DNA of 27,326 nucleotides from a virus. Made by a program: the position numbers and the translations under genes. Below, one piece after another: positions 835-25,345 of this stretch; position 1 is the first letter of the stretch, and each line of letters begins with the position of its first letter. The stretch lies in IMG/VR virus record IMGVR_UViG_3300036857_000441, positions 1 to 27,326 of that record, one strand, 5' to 3'. A model generated the notes under the pieces. It was not told the origin of the DNA and did not search any database. It worked only from the letters and a program-made list of their open reading frames with translations.

Positions 835-2139
835 ATGACGCCGACCCTGCCCGTGAGCGCGATCGCTCCTGGCCTCGCCGACCTGCGCGTGCCGATCGAG
901 TCGCTGCACCCCTACTCGCGCAACCCTCGGCGCGGCAACCTGGAGGCGATCAAGGCCTCGCTGCTCGCCCACGGCCAGTACCGCCCGCTCGTCGCGCGCA
1001 AGGGCAGCGGCGAGGTGCTGGCCGGGAACCACACGCTGGCCGCCGCGCGCGAGCTCGGCTGGGACTCGATCGCCGCGACCTTCATCGAGGTGGACGACGA
1101 GCAGGCGGCGCGGATCGTGCTGGTGGACAACCGCACCGCTGACCTGGGCGTCTACGACGACGGCGAACTCGCGGCGCTGCTGCAGTCGCTGCCGGGTCTC
1201 GACGGCACGGGCTGGGATGAGAACGAGTTCGCGCGTCTGGTCGCTCAGCTGCAGAGCGGCGATGATCGAGACACGCCGCCAGGGCCGCCACCGGCCGAGC
1301 CGATCGCGCGACTGGGCGACCTCTGGCAACTCGGTCGGCACCGCCTGCTTTGTGGCGATGCGACCGACCCGGCGGCTGTGGAGCGGCTGCTCGGAGGAGC
1401 CAAGCCGAAGCTGCTCGCGACCGACCCGCCCTACGGGGTGAGCCTGGACATGGAGTGGCGCGACCTGGCCGGGTTCAACAATGCGCGCTTCCTTGGCACG
1501 AAGGACCGTCGGGATGGCTACGTCGCGCCAGCAGAGCCGAGCTATCTGCGCAGCAGGCAGGGCAACCGCTCGATCTCTGGTGACGACCGGGCCGACTGGT
1601 CGGAGGCCTTCGCGCTCGTCCCGAGCCTGCGCGTTGCGTATGTGTGGTTCGCCGATCGCTACTGCCTGACGGTCGGCGCCGGTCTTGAACGGCTCGGCTT
1701 CGAGCTCGCGCAGCTGATCGTGTGGGACAAGCAGCGAATGGTGCTCTCGCGCACGCACTACCACTCGCAGCATGAGCCATGCTGGTACGCGCGCAGGAAG
1801 GGTGCCGGGCGCTTTCTCGGGCCTCGCAATCAGACGACCGTCTGGTCGCATCCGTCGCCGAAAATGATCTCAACCGGCTCCGAGCCTGACGACGAGCGCG
1901 AGGATCATCCAACACAGAAGCCGGTCGAGTTGTTCGCGCGGCCGATGCGTAATCACCTGGGCCGCAGGGATAGCTTCTACGAGCCGTTCTGCGGCTCCGG
2001 CACGGCGCTCGTTGCTGGCGAGAACGTTGGTCGCCAGGGCTTCGCGCTGGAGATCGACCCGGTCTACTGCGACGTGATCGTGGATCGCTGGCAGCGGCAC
2101 ACGGGCGGGAAGGCCGAGGTCGAGCATGCCGCGCTATAG
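835..2139 (+). CDS. ParB-like domain / DNA adenine methyltransferase fusion
   Basis: A 434-residue two-domain protein. Residues 15-110 are a ParB/sulfiredoxin-like domain, with RNPR at about 29-32 and GNHT at 64-67 in place of the usual GxHR. A Pro-rich linker (about 146-156) leads to a methyltransferase: DPPY at 197-200 (motif IV) comes before FCGSGTA at 385-391 (motif I), the order of β-class amino-methyltransferases, and DPPY favours N6-adenine. It probably methylates phage DNA to protect it or mark it for packaging. No cognate restriction endonuclease is visible. The gene sits just before small terminase and overlaps it by 14 bases. ParB-methylase fusions are a recurring phage architecture. 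Confidence 0.88.
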   Translation: MTPTLPVSAIAPGLADLRVPIESLHPYSRNPRRGNLEAIKASLLAHGQYRPLVARKGSGEVLAGNHTLAAARELGWDSIAATFIEVDDEQAARIVLVDNRTADLGVYDDGELAALLQSLPGLDGTGWDENEFARLVAQLQSGDDRDTPPGPPPAEPIARLGDLWQLGRHRLLCGDATDPAAVERLLGGAKPKLLATDPPYGVSLDMEWRDLAGFNNARFLGTKDRRDGYVAPAEPSYLRSRQGNRSISGDDRADWSEAFALVPSLRVAYVWFADRYCLTVGAGLERLGFELAQLIVWDKQRMVLSRTHYHSQHEPCWYARRKGAGRFLGPRNQTTVWSHPSPKMISTGSEPDDEREDHPTQKPVELFARPMRNHLGRRDSFYEPFCGSGTALVAGENVGRQGFALEIDPVYCDVIVDRWQRHTGGKAEVEHAAL

Positions 2140-2506
2140 CCGACCGAGCGAGCGCGTCCAGCAGCTGATCGCGATGCTGCGCGCGGGCAACTACCTGGAC
2201 GTCGCCTGCCGCGCCGCCGGGGTCGCGGTCGAAGACCTTGCGGACTGGGTCGAACGCTCGGACGAGCTTGCGCGCCAGGTGGCGCAGGCCGTCGCCGAGG
2301 GCGAGGCGCGCGCCGTCACGCAGATCGCGCAGGCCGCGCGCGAGAACTGGCAGGCGGCGGCCTGGCTGCTGGAGCGGCAGTACCCGGAGCGCTGGGCGCG
2401 CCCGCTGGCGCGGACGACCGACGAGGCGGTGCCCGCGCTCGGGACCGACGCGGTCGATGAGCTTGCCTCGAAGCGCGCGACGCGAAGGGCGCGCCTCAGT
2501 CCGTGA
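2126..2506 (+). CDS. terS: Terminase small subunit
   Basis: A 126-residue, mostly helical protein. The N-terminal part (about residues 5-50) reads as a helix-turn-helix of the kind that binds packaging sites (RAGNYLDVACRAAGVAVEDL). It is followed by a helix and the phrase NWQAAAWLLERQYPERW, which is characteristic of phage small terminases of actinobacterial and proteobacterial phages. It overlaps the methyltransferase upstream by 14 bases and the large terminase downstream by four. It should recognise the pac or cos site and hand DNA to the large subunit. Confidence 0.85.
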   Translation: MPRYSRPSERVQQLIAMLRAGNYLDVACRAAGVAVEDLADWVERSDELARQVAQAVAEGEARAVTQIAQAARENWQAAAWLLERQYPERWARPLARTTDEAVPALGTDAVDELASKRATRRARLSP

Positions 2507-3948
2507 GCGTCGCCGAGGTCGGGGTGCAGAGGCCGCGCATCATGCGCGTGCCGAAGTACCAGTCGAGCGCCGGCGCCGAGGCGGTCGAGCTTGCGGCGAT
2601 GGCCGGTCTGGCGCTCGACCCCTGGGAGGCGCTGGTCTTGAAACACGCCCTGGGCGAACGGCTCGACGGGCGCTGGGCAGCGACCGAAGTCGGCCTCTGC
2701 GTGCCACGCCAGAACGGTAAGAACGCGGTGCTGGAGGCGCGCGAGCTTTTCGGCCTGTTCCTGCTCGGCGAGCCGCTGATCATCCACTCGGCGCAGCACT
2801 TCAAGACGGCCAAGGAGCACTTCCTGCGCCTGCTCGCGCTGATCGAGGGGACGCCCGACTTTGCCCGCCGGGTCAAGCGCGTGATCCGCACGCACGGCGA
2901 GGAGGGGATCGAGCTCACGAACGGCCAGCGGATCCTGTTCTTCGCGCGCACGAAGTCCTCGGGCCGAGGCTTCACCGCGCCGCTGGTCGTCTACGACGAG
3001 GCGATGTTCCTGGCCGAGGCTTCGCTGGGTGCGTTGATGCCGACGATGGCGACGATGCCGAACCGGCAACGCTGGTTCACCGGCTCGGCGGTCGATCAGC
3101 TGGTGCATCTCGAAGGCGTCGTCTTCACGCGCGTGCGCGAGCGCGCGCTGGCGACGAGCGACCCGCGTCTTGCCTACTTCGAGTGGTCGCTGGAGCACGA
3201 CACGCCCGACCTGCTCGACGCCGAGACGGCGCGCGACCCCGGCGCCTGGGCGATCGCTAACCCCGGCCTCGGGATCCGGGTGATGAGCGAGGCGGTCGAG
3301 GACGAGTTCAACACGCTTGACCGGCGCACGTTCGCGGTCGAGCGGCTGGGCGTCGGCGACTGGCCGCCGACCGACACGACCACGCCCGCGCTGGTGGCGC
3401 CCGAGGCCTGGTGGGCGCTGACCGACGAGGCCTCGCAGCTGCTCGACCCGGTCTGCTTCGCCTTCGACGTCGCGCCCGACCGCTCCTCAGCGGCGATCGC
3501 CGCCGCCGGCCGACGCCACGACGGGTTGCTGCACCTGGAGATCGTCGCGCACGACCGAGGCGCGACCTGGGCACCGCAGCGGCTGGCGCAGCTGAACGAT
3601 CGCTGGCACCCGCTCGCCGTCCTCTGCGACGCGGTCGGGCCGGTCGCCTCGCTGATCCACGCCTGCGAGGAGGCGGGCGTAATCGTTCGGCCGGTCAAGG
3701 CGTCCGAGCACGCGAAGGCCTGCGGGATGCTGCTGGACACGATCGAGGACGAAGGCCTGCGCCACCTGGGCAGCGCCGAGCTCGCGGTCGCGCTGGCGGC
3801 GGCGACCAAGCGCCCGCTGGGAGATGCCTTCGCCTGGTCGCGCAAGAACTCGAACGCCGACATTACGCCGCTAGTCGCGGCCACGCTGGCGCTGTGGGGG
3901 TCGATCACGCTCGGCTGGGATCCCGACGAGGAACTGCGGATCTACTGA
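2503..3948 (+). CDS. terL: Terminase large subunit
   Basis: A 481-residue packaging motor. The ATPase shows a Walker A-like PRQNGKN at residues 68-74 and a Walker B LVVYDEA with D165-E166. In the C-terminal nuclease, acidic residues are visible in FAFDVAPDRS, VLCDAVG and the final GDAFAWSRKNSNAD. Length and order match Terminase_1-type proteins of siphoviruses. Translation probably starts at GTG 2503, in the four-base overlap with small terminase. It pumps phage DNA through the portal and cuts it. After the stop there is a 77-base gap with a promoter-like sequence, so this operon ends here or is supplemented here. Confidence 0.95.
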   Translation: MSVAEVGVQRPRIMRVPKYQSSAGAEAVELAAMAGLALDPWEALVLKHALGERLDGRWAATEVGLCVPRQNGKNAVLEARELFGLFLLGEPLIIHSAQHFKTAKEHFLRLLALIEGTPDFARRVKRVIRTHGEEGIELTNGQRILFFARTKSSGRGFTAPLVVYDEAMFLAEASLGALMPTMATMPNRQRWFTGSAVDQLVHLEGVVFTRVRERALATSDPRLAYFEWSLEHDTPDLLDAETARDPGAWAIANPGLGIRVMSEAVEDEFNTLDRRTFAVERLGVGDWPPTDTTTPALVAPEAWWALTDEASQLLDPVCFAFDVAPDRSSAAIAAAGRRHDGLLHLEIVAHDRGATWAPQRLAQLNDRWHPLAVLCDAVGPVASLIHACEEAGVIVRPVKASEHAKACGMLLDTIEDEGLRHLGSAELAVALAAATKRPLGDAFAWSRKNSNADITPLVAATLALWGSITLGWDPDEELRIY

Positions 3949-3992: not shown

Positions 3993-4025
3993 CTGCCCGA
4001 GACGCGAACGAGGAGGACGATCTAA

Positions 4026-5468
4026 ATGACCGAGGTACAAGGCACCGGCCGGGTGCAGCTACCGGCCTCGAAAGACCTGCGCGCGCTCAGCCGCCGCTTC
4101 AAGCAGGGCTTCCGCTGGAAGCCAACCCGAGGCGGGCACTGGCGCCTGGTCGATCGGCACGGCCGTTACGTCGAACACGACGGGACGAACATCACCGTCG
4201 GAGACAATCCCAGCCCCGGCGCGCTGCGCGCTCTCACCGAGCAGCTAACCGAGGCGCGCGTCTTGAGGGGGACGCGACAGCGCGACGTCAGCGGCGCCGG
4301 TCTCAAGCGCCGAGCCGACGCTTACCGCAAGATGGCCGCCGCTCGCGACGAGCGCCGCCAGGTGGTCGCCACCGACCGGCTCAAGCGGTACGCCGCTGTG
4401 CTCAAACCGATGGGCGGGATCGAAACGCCAGGGATCGCGACTGAACTCGGCGCCGCCGGGATGGTCGTCGCGCGCGAAGACCTCGGGCGCGAGCTGGGCC
4501 TTGACCTGCTGGCGCAGAACGCGCGCCGCGTGGTCAACGGCGCCTGGGTCGAGGATCGCTACGGCGAGATTTGGGACGCGGTGCTTGCCCGGCTGGAGCG
4601 AGCGCCGGACGCGGTCGGCGAGTGGTTCACACTGATCCGCGAAGGGCGCGGCCTCCCGGCTGACCACGTCGAGGTGCGACTGCCGAAGGGCGCGCAGGAC
4701 GACTGGCCCTTTGACGTCAAGCTGCTACCGCTCGACGCGCTGTTCGCCGACGAGACCTACCAGCGCCCGGTCAACTGGCCGTTCGTGCGCAAGGAGGCGG
4801 CGCGCTTCGATGCCTCGCTGGTCGGGACGATCGACGTCGCCCAGCGCGGGCCAGCCCAGTTCGCGATCCTCGACGGGCAGCAGCGCCAGCAGATCGTGCG
4901 GCTCGCGGGGAAGACGACGCTGTTCGCCTCGATCTACGTCGGCCTCGACCTGCCCAGTGAGGCGCGCTTCTTCCTGCACAAGAACCGCGACCGGCGCAAC
5001 GTCCACCCCTACTACACCTACCAGGCGAAGCTGACTGCGCGCGACCCGGACGCGCTCGGGATCGAGCAGGCCGTCAGCAAGTTCGGCTACAAGATCGCGA
5101 TCGGTGCTCCTCGCGGCGGCGAAATGCCGGACAACATCGCCGCGATCGCCGCCGTCGAGATCGCCTACGGTCTCAAGCTGCCCGACGGCAGTGACGCGCT
5201 CACGCCCACTCTGGCGACGATGCGCGAGGCGACCTACGGGCGCGCGCTCGGCAACAGCGCCGCCCTGATCCGAGGCCTCGCGACCATCTACGCCGAGAAC
5301 GGGCTGCACGGCAACGTCGATCCCGAGCGGATGGCGAAGGCGATCCTGGGCGTCGGCCCGGAACTCCTGGTCGGGCGCGCGCGCGACGTCGTCCGCTCCT
5401 CGGGCGGGCAGGTCTACCGGCGGATGGTCGATGTGCTGCTGGCCGAGTACCGGAAGGCCTCGAAGTGA
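4026..5468 (+). CDS. HicA-like domain fused to ParB-like domain
   Basis: A 480-residue protein in its own transcription unit, with an ideal AGGAGG (4011-4016) nine bases before ATG. Residues 18-80 resemble a HicA/YcfA double-stranded-RNA-binding fold: RGGHW with H38 in the place of the HicA catalytic His, strands in VDRHGRYV, then a helix starting PSPGALRALTEQL. After a basic, probably helical linker (80-125), residues 225-300 form a ParB/sulfiredoxin-like domain with DGQQR at 283-287. The C-terminal 180 residues are helical and unassigned. ParB-like proteins of unknown role are widespread in actinophages; I know no characterised one with this HicA-like head. It could bind nucleic acid and regulate its own operator, or act on host RNA. 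Function is not proven. Confidence 0.7.
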   Translation: MTEVQGTGRVQLPASKDLRALSRRFKQGFRWKPTRGGHWRLVDRHGRYVEHDGTNITVGDNPSPGALRALTEQLTEARVLRGTRQRDVSGAGLKRRADAYRKMAAARDERRQVVATDRLKRYAAVLKPMGGIETPGIATELGAAGMVVAREDLGRELGLDLLAQNARRVVNGAWVEDRYGEIWDAVLARLERAPDAVGEWFTLIREGRGLPADHVEVRLPKGAQDDWPFDVKLLPLDALFADETYQRPVNWPFVRKEAARFDASLVGTIDVAQRGPAQFAILDGQQRQQIVRLAGKTTLFASIYVGLDLPSEARFFLHKNRDRRNVHPYYTYQAKLTARDPDALGIEQAVSKFGYKIAIGAPRGGEMPDNIAAIAAVEIAYGLKLPDGSDALTPTLATMREATYGRALGNSAALIRGLATIYAENGLHGNVDPERMAKAILGVGPELLVGRARDVVRSSGGQVYRRMVDVLLAEYRKASK

Positions 5469-5656
5469 TCCGGGTCGAGGTCGTCAACGATGGCACCGGC
5501 GACGTCGAGCGCGGCAACTACGACGTGAGCGTCACAGTGCCGCGTCGCGGGGAGGCGGTCGTTTACTCGGCGAGGGTCAAGGACTTCGACCGAGGGCGTG
5601 GCTGGGCCGAACTCGTGCGCGAGGCGGTCGCGGCTCTGGAGGAGGTCGGCGTTTGA
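5465..5656 (+). CDS. Small hypothetical protein after the HicA/ParB-like gene
   Basis: A 63-residue protein with GTG start at 5465, overlapping the preceding stop by four bases and so translationally coupled. The sequence alternates strands (MIRVEVVN, YDVSVTVP, VVYSARV) and ends in a helix (WAELVREAVAALEEV), a small β-β-β-α shape. It is reminiscent in size and composition of a HicB-type or other small antitoxin partner, but no family motif is clear. Position immediately behind a protein with a HicA-like domain makes a partner role worth testing. Confidence 0.65.
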   Translation: MIRVEVVNDGTGDVERGNYDVSVTVPRRGEAVVYSARVKDFDRGRGWAELVREAVAALEEVGV

Positions 5657-5705
5657 ACATCTGGCGCTGGCAGCTGCGCGAGCGCGCCGATCTCGCGATG
5701 AGGCC

Positions 5706-5711
5706 TATAAG
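5706..5711 (+). promoter_or_regulatory. Possible -10 element in the gap before portal
   Basis: TATAAG stands out in a GC-rich gap, but no -35 match lies at the right distance. If active, it would give a short transcript of about 75 bases ending at the hairpin 5758-5791. Weak call. Confidence 0.25.
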
Positions 5712-5757
5712 ATCGCCGAGTGTCCGCGCGTCCGGGCAGGACTGCGGCGAGCACGAC

Positions 5758-5791
5758 GATGAGGGAGGGCGGCTGCGGTCGCCCTCTCATC
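5758..5791 (+). terminator. Hairpin terminator before the portal operon
   Basis: GATGA-GG-GAGGGCG pairs with CGCCCTC-TCATC around an eight-base loop: twelve base pairs with a two-base bulge, followed by GTTT. It sits between the HicA/ParB-like unit and the head operon. The T-run is short, so it may be a partial terminator. The gap 5657-5827 holds no convincing gene. Confidence 0.6.
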
Positions 5792-5810
5792 GTTTGCACC
5801 TGGGCAAACG
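5791..5810. promoter_or_regulatory. Operator-like dyad, copy 2
   Basis: CGTTTGC-N6-GCAAACG is a perfect seven-base-arm inverted repeat. It covers the -35 (TTGCAC, 5794-5799) and much of the spacer of the portal promoter. The same dyad with one changed base is at 3975-3992. A repressor bound here would block the head operon. Confidence 0.6.
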
Positions 5811-5821
5811 GGCCGTAGAAT
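5794..5821 (+). promoter_or_regulatory. Portal (head operon) promoter
   Basis: TTGCAC (5794-5799), a 16-base spacer and TAGAAT (5816-5821) form the best σ70-type promoter I see in the window. The expected transcription start falls at or next to 5828, the A of the portal ATG, and there is no Shine-Dalgarno between the -10 and the ATG. The mRNA is therefore probably leaderless. Confidence 0.7.
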
Positions 5822-5827
5822 CTGAAC

Positions 5828-7057
5828 ATGCGGCTTCGTCGTCGCCGCGAGCCACTCCCCGCAGCGGATAACGCAGTCCCGCCGACCTTCACGAGCTTCG
5901 GCGACTTCCTCGGGCACGCGCTGCGGAACCGCGCCGACGGCTGGTTCGAGTCGCTGGTCGGTTACCGGGGCGAGCAGGTGGGGACGGTCGATCGCTGTCT
6001 GCAGCTGAACTCGCAGCAGATCGCCTCGATGCCGCTGCGCTATCGACACTCAGAGGCGACCTCGGCCGACCGGCCGGCCTGGGTCTCAGACCCCGATCCG
6101 GCTTGGTACCCGAACGGGATCCACGACGCGATCTTCGCGGCGATCTGGTCGATCTACGCCCAGGGCGAGGCCTTCCTGTACGTGACCAGCCGCTACGCCG
6201 ACGGCTACCCGCTGACCTGGACGCTGCTCGACCCGGTGACGATGAAGGTCGAGGACGAGGGCGGAATGCGCTGGTACCAATCGAACGGCCACCCGCTCGA
6301 CCCCGGCGACGTGATCCAGGTGATGCGCGATCCGACCGGCGCGCTGCGCGGGCGCTCGTCGCTGGATGCCTACTGGTCGAACGTGAGCTCAGCGGCTGCC
6401 GCCGACAGCTACGCGGCCGATGTCTACTACTCGACCGGCGTCAACCGGATGGCGCTCAAGTCCTCGCGGCGGCTCGACGCCGAGCAGGCGGCGGCGATCC
6501 AGGCGCAATGGGTGGCGGCGGTCTCGAAGCGGCTTGGCGCGCCCGCGATCATCCCGCCCGACCTGGAACTGCTGCAGGCGTTGACCATCTCGCCGAAGGA
6601 CATGATGCTGCTGGAGTCGCGCGACTGGGACGCGCGCCAGATCGCCGCCGCCTTCGGCGTCCCGGCGATCCTGCTCAACATCCCGGTGAGCGGCAGCCTC
6701 GTCTACCAGAACCCGGCGATGCTGGCCGACCTCTGGTGGCGGGCGGAGTTGATGCCGACGGCGGTCAAGCTGCAGGAGGCGCTGAGCCGCTGGCTGCCGC
6801 GCGGGCACTGGGTCGAGTTCGACCCCTCGGCCTCGATCCGCCCCGACCTGAGCACGCTGGTGACGATCTACTCGAAGGCGCTCGCCGACGGCGCCGTCAC
6901 CGCCGACGAGTACCGCGCAGCGGTCTTCGACCTGCCGCCGCTGCGCGAAGGCGACCAGGCGGCCGACTACTACGAGGAGGCCGGGACGCACGGCTCGATC
7001 GGCTCGTCGCCGACGGCGCTCGACGCGGCTCTGCCCGAGGAGGTGTTGACGCCATGA
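5828..7057 (+). CDS. Portal protein (HK97 family)
   Basis: A 409-residue portal that forms the dodecameric ring at the capsid vertex for DNA entry and tail attachment. Family features include a basic N-terminus, VDRCLQLNSQQIASMPLR near residues 54-71, YAQGEAFLYV near 113-122, a GDVIQVM loop segment, and DARQIAAAFGVPAILLNIP near 272-290, a hallmark of HK97-like portals. Its order before protease and capsid is canonical. No ribosome site precedes the ATG, which lies just after the -10 element (see promoter). The stop overlaps the ATG of the protease by four bases. Confidence 0.93.
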   Translation: MRLRRRREPLPAADNAVPPTFTSFGDFLGHALRNRADGWFESLVGYRGEQVGTVDRCLQLNSQQIASMPLRYRHSEATSADRPAWVSDPDPAWYPNGIHDAIFAAIWSIYAQGEAFLYVTSRYADGYPLTWTLLDPVTMKVEDEGGMRWYQSNGHPLDPGDVIQVMRDPTGALRGRSSLDAYWSNVSSAAAADSYAADVYYSTGVNRMALKSSRRLDAEQAAAIQAQWVAAVSKRLGAPAIIPPDLELLQALTISPKDMMLLESRDWDARQIAAAFGVPAILLNIPVSGSLVYQNPAMLADLWWRAELMPTAVKLQEALSRWLPRGHWVEFDPSASIRPDLSTLVTIYSKALADGAVTADEYRAAVFDLPPLREGDQAADYYEEAGTHGSIGSSPTALDAALPEEVLTP

Positions 7058-24742: not shown

Positions 24743-25345
24743 ATGAATGAGCAGAAGCAGGACTTGGCGGTGCGCGAGCAGGCGGACCTGGAGTACGACC
24801 GCTTCGCCCGCCTCGGGACGTGGCTGGCGGCGACCGAGGGCAGCGACGACCCGCGCGGCAAGGACGGGATGGTGGCGGCGCTGCGCTTCGCGCTGGCCGC
24901 CGAGCTTGGCTGGCCGCTGCGGGCGGCGTCCGAGATCGCGGTGATCCACGGCCGTCTGCACATCTCCTCGAAGATGCTGCGCGCCCTCGCCGAGCGCGAG
25001 GGCTACCGGGTGGTGCGGGCCGAGGAGACGCCGAGCAGCTGCACGGCGGCGGTGCTCGACTCGGCGGGCGAGGAGGTTGGGCGGGCGACCTTCACGATCG
25101 AGGACGCGCAGCGGGCGGGCCTGATCCGCGAGCGCAGCGGCTGGAAGACCTACCCGGCGCGGATGCTGTGGGCGCGGGCGGCGGGCTGGGCGATCAACGA
25201 CGCGATCCCGCACGTCGCGCTCGGCCTGCCGATGACCGAGGAGGCCGACTGGATCGAGGCGACCGCCGAGGAGGTCAGCGAGGCGATCGAGCGCGGCGCC
25301 CCGGCCGAGACCGAGCAGCCCGAACGGGAGGAGGCGCCCGCATGA
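24743..25345 (+). CDS. RecT-like single-strand annealing protein candidate
   Basis: A 200-residue protein with AGGAGG a few bases before ATG 24743. The order of segments matches RecT/Bet-type phage recombinases: LRFALAAELGWPL near 47-59, IAVIHGRLHISSKMLRALAE near 65-84, a C100-containing strand, FTIEDAQRAGL near 117-127, W134-KTYPARMLWARA near 134-146, and a final LGLPMTEEADW. Such proteins anneal complementary single strands. No exonuclease partner is recognised nearby. The family name needs a profile search, but the pattern is good. Confidence 0.75.
   Translation: MNEQKQDLAVREQADLEYDRFARLGTWLAATEGSDDPRGKDGMVAALRFALAAELGWPLRAASEIAVIHGRLHISSKMLRALAEREGYRVVRAEETPSSCTAAVLDSAGEEVGRATFTIEDAQRAGLIRERSGWKTYPARMLWARAAGWAINDAIPHVALGLPMTEEADWIEATAEEVSEAIERGAPAETEQPEREEAPA

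What the first reader, a model, noticed from the sequence alone, without database searches (positions are those of the whole stretch)
4026..5656. HicA-like domain fused to a ParB-like domain, with a coupled small gene
H38 in RGGHW with following strands and helix looks like HicA; D283-G-Q-Q-R looks like the ParB/sulfiredoxin core. The pair has its own promoter, an ideal ribosome site and an operator shared with the head operon. A protein that joins an RNA-targeting toxin fold to a ParB fold could be a new phage control or defence module, with 5465-5656 as candidate partner or antitoxin.
Basis: partly seen in the sequence, partly recalled or inferred. Interest (0 to 1): 0.75.

Follow-up and report, generated by a model that had tools for sequence, protein, structure and literature searches.

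The report
Phage HicA-like–ParB-like fusion with partner
A virus of an actinobacterium-like host carries a protein that joins a small RNA-cutting-toxin-like fold (HicA-like) to a nucleotide-binding ParB-like domain, always followed by a small acidic partner gene; this joint is not listed in the published surveys of either family, and what it does has not been tested.

Summary
The 480-aa gene (4026-5468) and the 63-aa gene overlapping it by 4 nt (5465-5656) are real, under purifying selection, and stay together in five distinct phage contigs and three genomic neighbourhoods.

C-terminus: Pfam DUF6551 (E 4e-8, above cut-off), profile-related to ParB_N (E 1e-6), with the GxxR motif. Published work shows that phage DUF6551 proteins can bind CTP or ATP.

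N-terminus (10-85): no Pfam hit, but its top PHROG is phrog_2089 (E 0.005), the family of actinophage 'HicA-like toxins'. A profile built from that family aligns over residues 9-80 (E 6e-6, score 32.4; best of 300 shuffles 23.4), H38 on the HicA catalytic His. AlphaFold gives the HicA alpha-beta-beta-beta-alpha topology.

The partner is acidic and the domain basic, as in HicAB pairs, but HicB homology is only marginal (3 of 200 shuffles as good).

Neither the 14-class HicA survey nor the 2025 ParB-fold survey lists this joint: a new architecture made of known parts. Most likely mechanism (inferred): NTP binding by the ParB fold switches an RNA-acting HicA-like head, restrained or tuned by the 63-aa partner. 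Catalysis and toxicity are untested.

The parts
4026..5468 (+). HicA-like / ParB-like (DUF6551) fusion protein, 480 aa
   Evidence: homologues in L001-L006
4053..4280 (+). N-terminal HicA-like (dsRBD-type alpha-beta-beta-beta-alpha) domain, residues 10-85
   Evidence: AF2 model, residues 11-80 with pLDDT about 90; phrog_2089 E 0.0053; hhalign E 6.4e-6 against actinobacterial HicA-like profile; HicA structures among top VIA hits
4137..4139 (+). Codon for H38, aligned with the catalytic His of HicA
   Evidence: Invariant in five homologues and in a 16-sequence alignment with HicA proteins
4281..4709 (+). Middle, helix-rich segment, residues 86-228, no known family
   Evidence: No Pfam match above cut-off; helices predicted at low confidence; dN/dS 0.27-0.44
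4752..5444 (+). DUF6551 domain (ParB-CTPase fold), residues 243-473
   Evidence: Pfam PF20188 33.5 bits against cut-off 26.8, all 5 relatives; ParB_N profile match E 1.2e-6
4872..4886 (+). D283-G-Q-Q-R287, P motif (GxxR) of the ParB fold
   Evidence: G, Q and R invariant across 8 diverse DUF6551 proteins
5465..5656 (+). 63-aa acidic partner, GTGA overlap with the large gene
   Evidence: Kept next to the fusion gene in L001-L005; L006 contig ends before the position
4011..4016 (+). AGGAGG ribosome-binding site
   Evidence: also in L003, L005 and L006
3975..3992 (.). Palindrome GTTAGC-N6-GCAAAC upstream of the fusion gene
   Evidence: kept in L003
5755..5794 (+). Terminator-like hairpin between the pair and the portal gene (no T run)
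   Evidence: -28.8 kcal/mol, z -4.5; kept in L003
5792..5809 (.). Palindrome GTTTGC-N6-GCAAAC overlapping the portal promoter

Best explanation
A two-gene phage cargo cassette. The large protein has an N-terminal HicA-like domain (dsRBD-type fold, presumed catalytic His38), a helical middle, and a C-terminal DUF6551 ParB-type nucleotide-binding domain. Binding (and perhaps hydrolysis) of CTP or ATP at the GxxR pocket changes the protein's dimer or conformational state, and this switches the HicA-like head between an idle state and one that binds or cleaves RNA (host or competing-phage mRNA). The co-translated acidic 63-aa protein binds the basic head or the whole protein and keeps it in check. 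Shown here: both domains, conserved H38 and GxxR, constant linkage of the pair, opposite charges, purifying selection. From the literature: nucleotide binding by phage DUF6551 proteins and toxicity of an actinophage HicA. Inferred: the switch, RNA as target, inhibition by the partner.
For: HicA-like head: isolated N-terminus hits phrog_2089 (E 0.0053), which holds the annotated HicA-like toxins Abt2graduatex2 gp67 (6e-22) and StarStruck gp7 (8e-24). hhalign to nine such phage proteins E 2.4e-4, score 25.1, no shuffle of 200 as high; to a 23-sequence profile E 6.4e-6, score 32.4 against best shuffle 23.4; that family in turn matches canonical HicA at E 4.9e-7. AF2 model pLDDT 83, topology as HicA; VIA hits include HicA 5yrz (Z 3.8), 6g26 (3.4), 1whz (3.3); BFVD 'HicA-like toxin' has the highest Foldseek probability of the rows shown, 0.91. 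ParB fold; phage DUF6551 proteins bind CTP or ATP through the GxxR arginine (PMC12704722). Partner: kept in three contexts, acidic pI 4.8-5.2 against head pI 9.6-11.7; Adephagia HicA/HicB show the same charge pattern, and toxin-inactivating substitutions there include H31 (PMC11373665).
Against: No RNase or toxicity data. VIA Z values (3-4) are low in absolute terms; Foldseek E-values are all above 0.09. Direct profile comparison with canonical HicA fails (E 0.12). The partner has no significant HicB match (prob 2.3%; 3 of 200 shuffles as good), and for the HicA-like protein of Abt2graduatex2 no protein antitoxin is known (PMC5773734). The C-terminal domain did not fold confidently with five sequences. 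No nucleotide binding was tested for this protein, and 17 of 28 ParB-fold proteins in the published assay bound none.
Confidence: 0.45

Rival explanations
1. The HicA-like head is only a nucleic-acid-binding adaptor (no catalysis): the protein is a nucleotide-dependent regulator or DNA/RNA-processing factor of the phage, the DUF6551 fold being the working part, and the 63-aa protein a cofactor.
For: DUF6551 proteins elsewhere lack the head and in several phages sit early in the operon that follows the repressor or excise gene; in Microcystis phage MinS1 the DUF6551 protein is longer and annotated Lsr2, i.e. another nucleic-acid-binding type of N-terminus; in L005/L006 the fusion gene follows a RecT-like gene. 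The ParB-fold protein DndB is a transcriptional repressor (PMC12704722).
Against: The catalytic-type His is invariant in all five homologues and aligned in most HicA-like relatives; a pure adaptor would not need it.
Confidence: 0.35
2. It is a defence or superinfection-exclusion toxin-antitoxin carried by the prophage: the ParB fold senses an incoming phage (or nucleotide depletion) and frees the toxin head, as CapRel-type fused toxins do.
For: Cargo-like mobility between three contexts; its own unit separated from the head operon by a strong hairpin; HicA fusions are proposed to act in anti-phage defence (PMC10865869); a serine recombinase in the window suggests a temperate phage.
Confidence: 0.15
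3. Ordinary ParB-type partition protein of a plasmid-like prophage.
For: ParB-type fold.
Against: No HTH, CTD or ParA-type partner gene found: Pfam shows only DUF6551, and the 63-aa neighbour has no Pfam match.
Confidence: 0.03

Closest known systems
DUF6551 (PF20188) ParB-CTPase-fold phage proteins (Gordonia, Mycobacterium abscessus, Staphylococcus phages; Mycobacterium plasmids)
   Same: Residues 229-480 align end to end at about 25-32% identity, GxxR motif kept; family members bind CTP or ATP (PMC12704722)
   Different: Most known members inspected are about 260-aa stand-alone proteins in the early region (MinS1 is longer); here there is an N-terminal extension of about 228 aa with a HicA-like head
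Actinophage HicA-like toxins, phrog_2089 (Abt2graduatex2 gp67, StarStruck gp7)
   Same: Same fold and His/Gly pattern, profile E 6e-6
   Different: Stand-alone proteins of 63-80 aa in phages and 79-131-aa open frames in actinobacterial genomes; no ParB domain, no constant 63-aa partner
HicAB toxin-antitoxin, including Adephagia gp91/gp90
   Same: alpha-beta-beta-beta-alpha head with His at the start of strand 2; basic head, small acidic partner of about 65 aa
   Different: Not matched by the HicA Pfam model; partner not shown to be HicB; toxin fused to a nucleotide-binding domain
SMC-HicA fusion (class 14 of Gerdes 2024, PMC10865869)
   Same: HicA domain joined to a nucleotide-binding DNA-related protein
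   Different: HicA is C-terminal there, and the nucleotide-binding part is an SMC ATPase, not a ParB fold
DndB / DGQHR domain (TIGR03187) and GmrSD_N
   Same: YQR...DGQxR signature in the ParB-like part, weak match E 3.5e-4
   Different: 20.4 bits against a cut-off of 58.85; no dnd or restriction partner seen

Membership tests
DUF6551 / ParB-CTPase fold | Match to PF20188 above gathering score | tested here: met
   33.5 bits against 26.8, all relatives
DUF6551 / ParB-CTPase fold | Relation to ParB_N | tested here: met
   hhalign E 1.2e-6, probability 91%
DUF6551 / ParB-CTPase fold | GxxR P motif | tested here: met
   G284-Q-Q-R287 invariant
DUF6551 / ParB-CTPase fold | NTP binding | not testable with these tools
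   Known for other phage DUF6551 proteins only
Canonical ParB partition protein | HTH and dimerisation domains | tested here: not met
   Pfam finds only DUF6551
[quoted passage not shown]
   AF2 model; HicA chains among the top VIA rows at Z 3.3-3.8, low in absolute terms
HicA-like domain | Sequence homology to the actinophage HicA-like family | tested here: met
   phrog_2089 E 0.0053; hhalign E 6.4e-6, above all 300 shuffles
HicA-like domain | Catalytic His at start of strand 2, preceded by Gly | tested here: met
   G37-H38, strand 38-42
Canonical HicA (PF07927) | Match to the HicA_toxin profile | tested here: not met
   No match; the proven toxin Adephagia gp91 also has none, so this is weak evidence
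HicAB toxin-antitoxin module | Adjacent HicB homologue | tested here: inconclusive
   63-aa partner against HicB: probability 2.3%, 3 of 200 shuffles as good
HicAB toxin-antitoxin module | Ribonuclease toxicity neutralised by the partner | not testable with these tools
   Needs expression assays
DndB / DGQHR (TIGR03187) | Score over curated cut-off | tested here: not met
   20.4 against 58.85 bits

The most novel reading that the evidence does not exclude
A nucleotide-gated HicA: a single-chain phage ribonuclease whose toxin head is switched by CTP or ATP binding to a ParB fold, with a new class of 63-aa antitoxin or regulator unrelated to HicB.
Probability: 0.25. Interest if true: 0.8.

Novelty: new variant of a known kind. 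Interest (0 to 1): 0.55.

Why it matters
The ParB fold is now known as a general CTP/ATP switch, but what most phage versions switch is unknown; HicA heads occur in many contexts with unknown control. A protein that joins the two, with a constant small partner, gives a compact system in which both questions can be tested with two point mutants (H38A, R287A). It would extend the published lists of HicA contexts (14 classes) and of ParB-fold fusions.

Tried and rejected
Sequence searches of the whole protein against Pfam, PHROGs, NCBIfam, PADLOC and PDB gave no HicA hit; only the isolated head and actinophage-specific profiles did. Direct head against canonical HicA profile: no signal. 396 actinobacterial genomes searched with the head profile: five marginal hits, about the number expected by chance, none convincing on inspection. 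Two genome-contig scans found no cellular copy of the fusion and one stand-alone DUF6551 in Gordonia. AF2 of the full chain was poor outside 10-80, so fold searches with it say nothing on the middle or C-terminal parts. Rfam: nothing meaningful near the hairpin. The 63-aa protein has no relative in phages or plasmids beyond chance. Self-regulation through the palindrome: disfavoured, since the site is absent upstream of the gene in L004-L006.

Full report
WHAT IS THERE. The window is a 27,326-base IMG/VR virus contig. Its terminase is nearest to Rhodococcus, Gordonia and Mycobacterium phages (about 40% identity), so the host is probably an actinobacterium (inference). Between the large terminase (2503-3948) and the portal (5828-7057) lie two overlapping genes: 4026-5468 (480 aa) and 5465-5656 (63 aa).

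C-TERMINUS. Residues 243-473 match Pfam DUF6551 above its gathering score, as do all relatives. A diverse DUF6551 alignment matches a ParB_N alignment at E 1.2e-6. The GxxR arginine is invariant. A 2025 survey of the ParB-CTPase fold found one phage DUF6551 protein that binds CTP and one that binds ATP, and lost nucleotide binding in the GxxR arginine mutants (PMC12704722). A weak DGQHR (DndB-type) match, below its cut-off, points to the same superfamily.

N-TERMINUS. General libraries were silent on the whole protein, but the isolated domain has phrog_2089 as its best PHROG, E 0.0053. That family contains the proteins published as HicA-like toxins in Streptomyces phage Abt2graduatex2 (PMC5773734) and Gordonia phage StarStruck (PMC9583778). 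A profile of nine such phage proteins aligns to the domain at E 2.4e-4, score 25.1 against a best of 23.1 in 200 column shuffles. Adding hits from actinobacterial genomes raised this to E 6.4e-6 over residues 9-80, score 32.4 against a best shuffle of 23.4 in 300; that 23-sequence profile includes a few short or poorly aligned fragments. The phage family itself matches canonical HicA at E 4.9e-7. H38 falls on the family His, and H38 and G46 are the only residues invariant in a 16-sequence alignment that includes E. coli HicA and the proven toxin Adephagia gp91 (PMC11373665). AlphaFold2 on the domain (pLDDT 83) gives helix 16-22, strands 30-33, 38-42 and 57-59, helix 64-76. In the PDB second look, five HicA entries stand in the top 13 rows (Z 2.5-3.8), behind or tied with YkfF (Z 3.9); in the viral library a protein named HicA-like toxin has the highest Foldseek probability of the rows shown, 0.91. 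The Z values are low and would not suffice alone; the sequence profile evidence carries the assignment.

PARTNER. The 63-aa protein is found beside the fusion gene in every related contig long enough to show it: L001-L004 directly behind, L005 behind an inserted 96-aa gene; L006 ends inside that 96-aa gene. The pair occurs in three neighbourhoods: between terminase and portal (window, L001-L003), behind a RecT-like gene (L005, L006), and in another context in L004. No relative without the fusion gene was seen. It is acidic in all (pI 4.8-5.2) while the HicA-like head is basic (9.6-11.7), the charge pattern reported for Adephagia HicB/HicA. Homology to HicB is not established: 3 of 200 shuffles score as well.

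REGULATION. A palindrome GTTTGC-N6-GCAAAC overlaps the portal promoter (TTTGCA-17-TAGAAT, ending 7 nt before the ATG), and a one-mismatch copy lies upstream of the fusion gene; both are kept in L003. L004-L006, where the gene sits elsewhere, lack it, so it looks like an operator of the resident phage. A hairpin of -28.8 kcal/mol separates the pair from the head genes, although it lacks a T run and the terminator scan did not call it.

HOW IT MOST LIKELY WORKS. A ParB-type nucleotide switch controls a HicA-like, RNA-directed head, and a co-translated acidic partner restrains it. The domains, motifs, linkage and selection (dN/dS 0.14-0.44) are shown; nucleotide binding is known for relatives; the switch, the RNA target and the inhibition are inferred. 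The chief rival is that the head is a non-catalytic nucleic-acid-binding adaptor of a phage regulator, as the differing N-terminus of the MinS1 DUF6551 protein suggests.

NOVELTY. The HicA survey lists 14 contexts, including HicB and SMC fusions, and does not mention ParB (PMC10865869). The ParB-fold survey's main text does not mention HicA or toxins. Literature searches found no such fusion; only open-licence papers are held, so absence is not proof. I rate it a new architecture of known parts.

LIMITS. Only five distinct sequences of the fusion are known here, all from metagenome contigs; conservation of H38 within them is modest evidence. The C-terminal model is poor, and no biochemical property was tested.

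Noticed in passing
window 5690-5828 and L003:5936-6074: Block between the 63-aa gene and the portal ATG is about 95% identical between the two phages (compared by eye) although portal synonymous divergence is 0.25: a -10-like TATAAGAT, the strong hairpin, the palindrome and a promoter ending 7 nt before the ATG (leaderless-like). Possible small RNA or compact terminator-operator-promoter block.
   Followed up: partly
L006 about 3130-3391 and L005 about 1290-1540: Further ORFs matching the HicA-like profile (E 2.5e-5 and 0.003) but without the catalytic His; possible inactive HicA-like proteins in the same phages.
   Followed up: no
L005:4965-5945 and L006:4964-5932: Proteins resembling the window's RecT-like protein end in an SSB-type acidic tail (DDIPF), while the window's RecT-like protein (24743-25342) lacks it.
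   Followed up: no
window 835-2136: ParB_N domain fused to an N6/N4 DNA methyltransferase just upstream of the terminase genes: a second ParB-fold protein in the same phage.
   Followed up: no
L022:3725-4936 (Microcystis phage MinS1): DUF6551 protein with a different N-terminal extension, annotated Lsr2: DUF6551 may be a module that takes different nucleic-acid-binding heads.
   Followed up: no
L019:4021-5768 and L021:3082-4756: In phiGD20-1 and Staphylococcus phage EW the DUF6551 gene directly follows and overlaps a canonical ParB-type regulator gene: pairing of two ParB-fold proteins.
   Followed up: no
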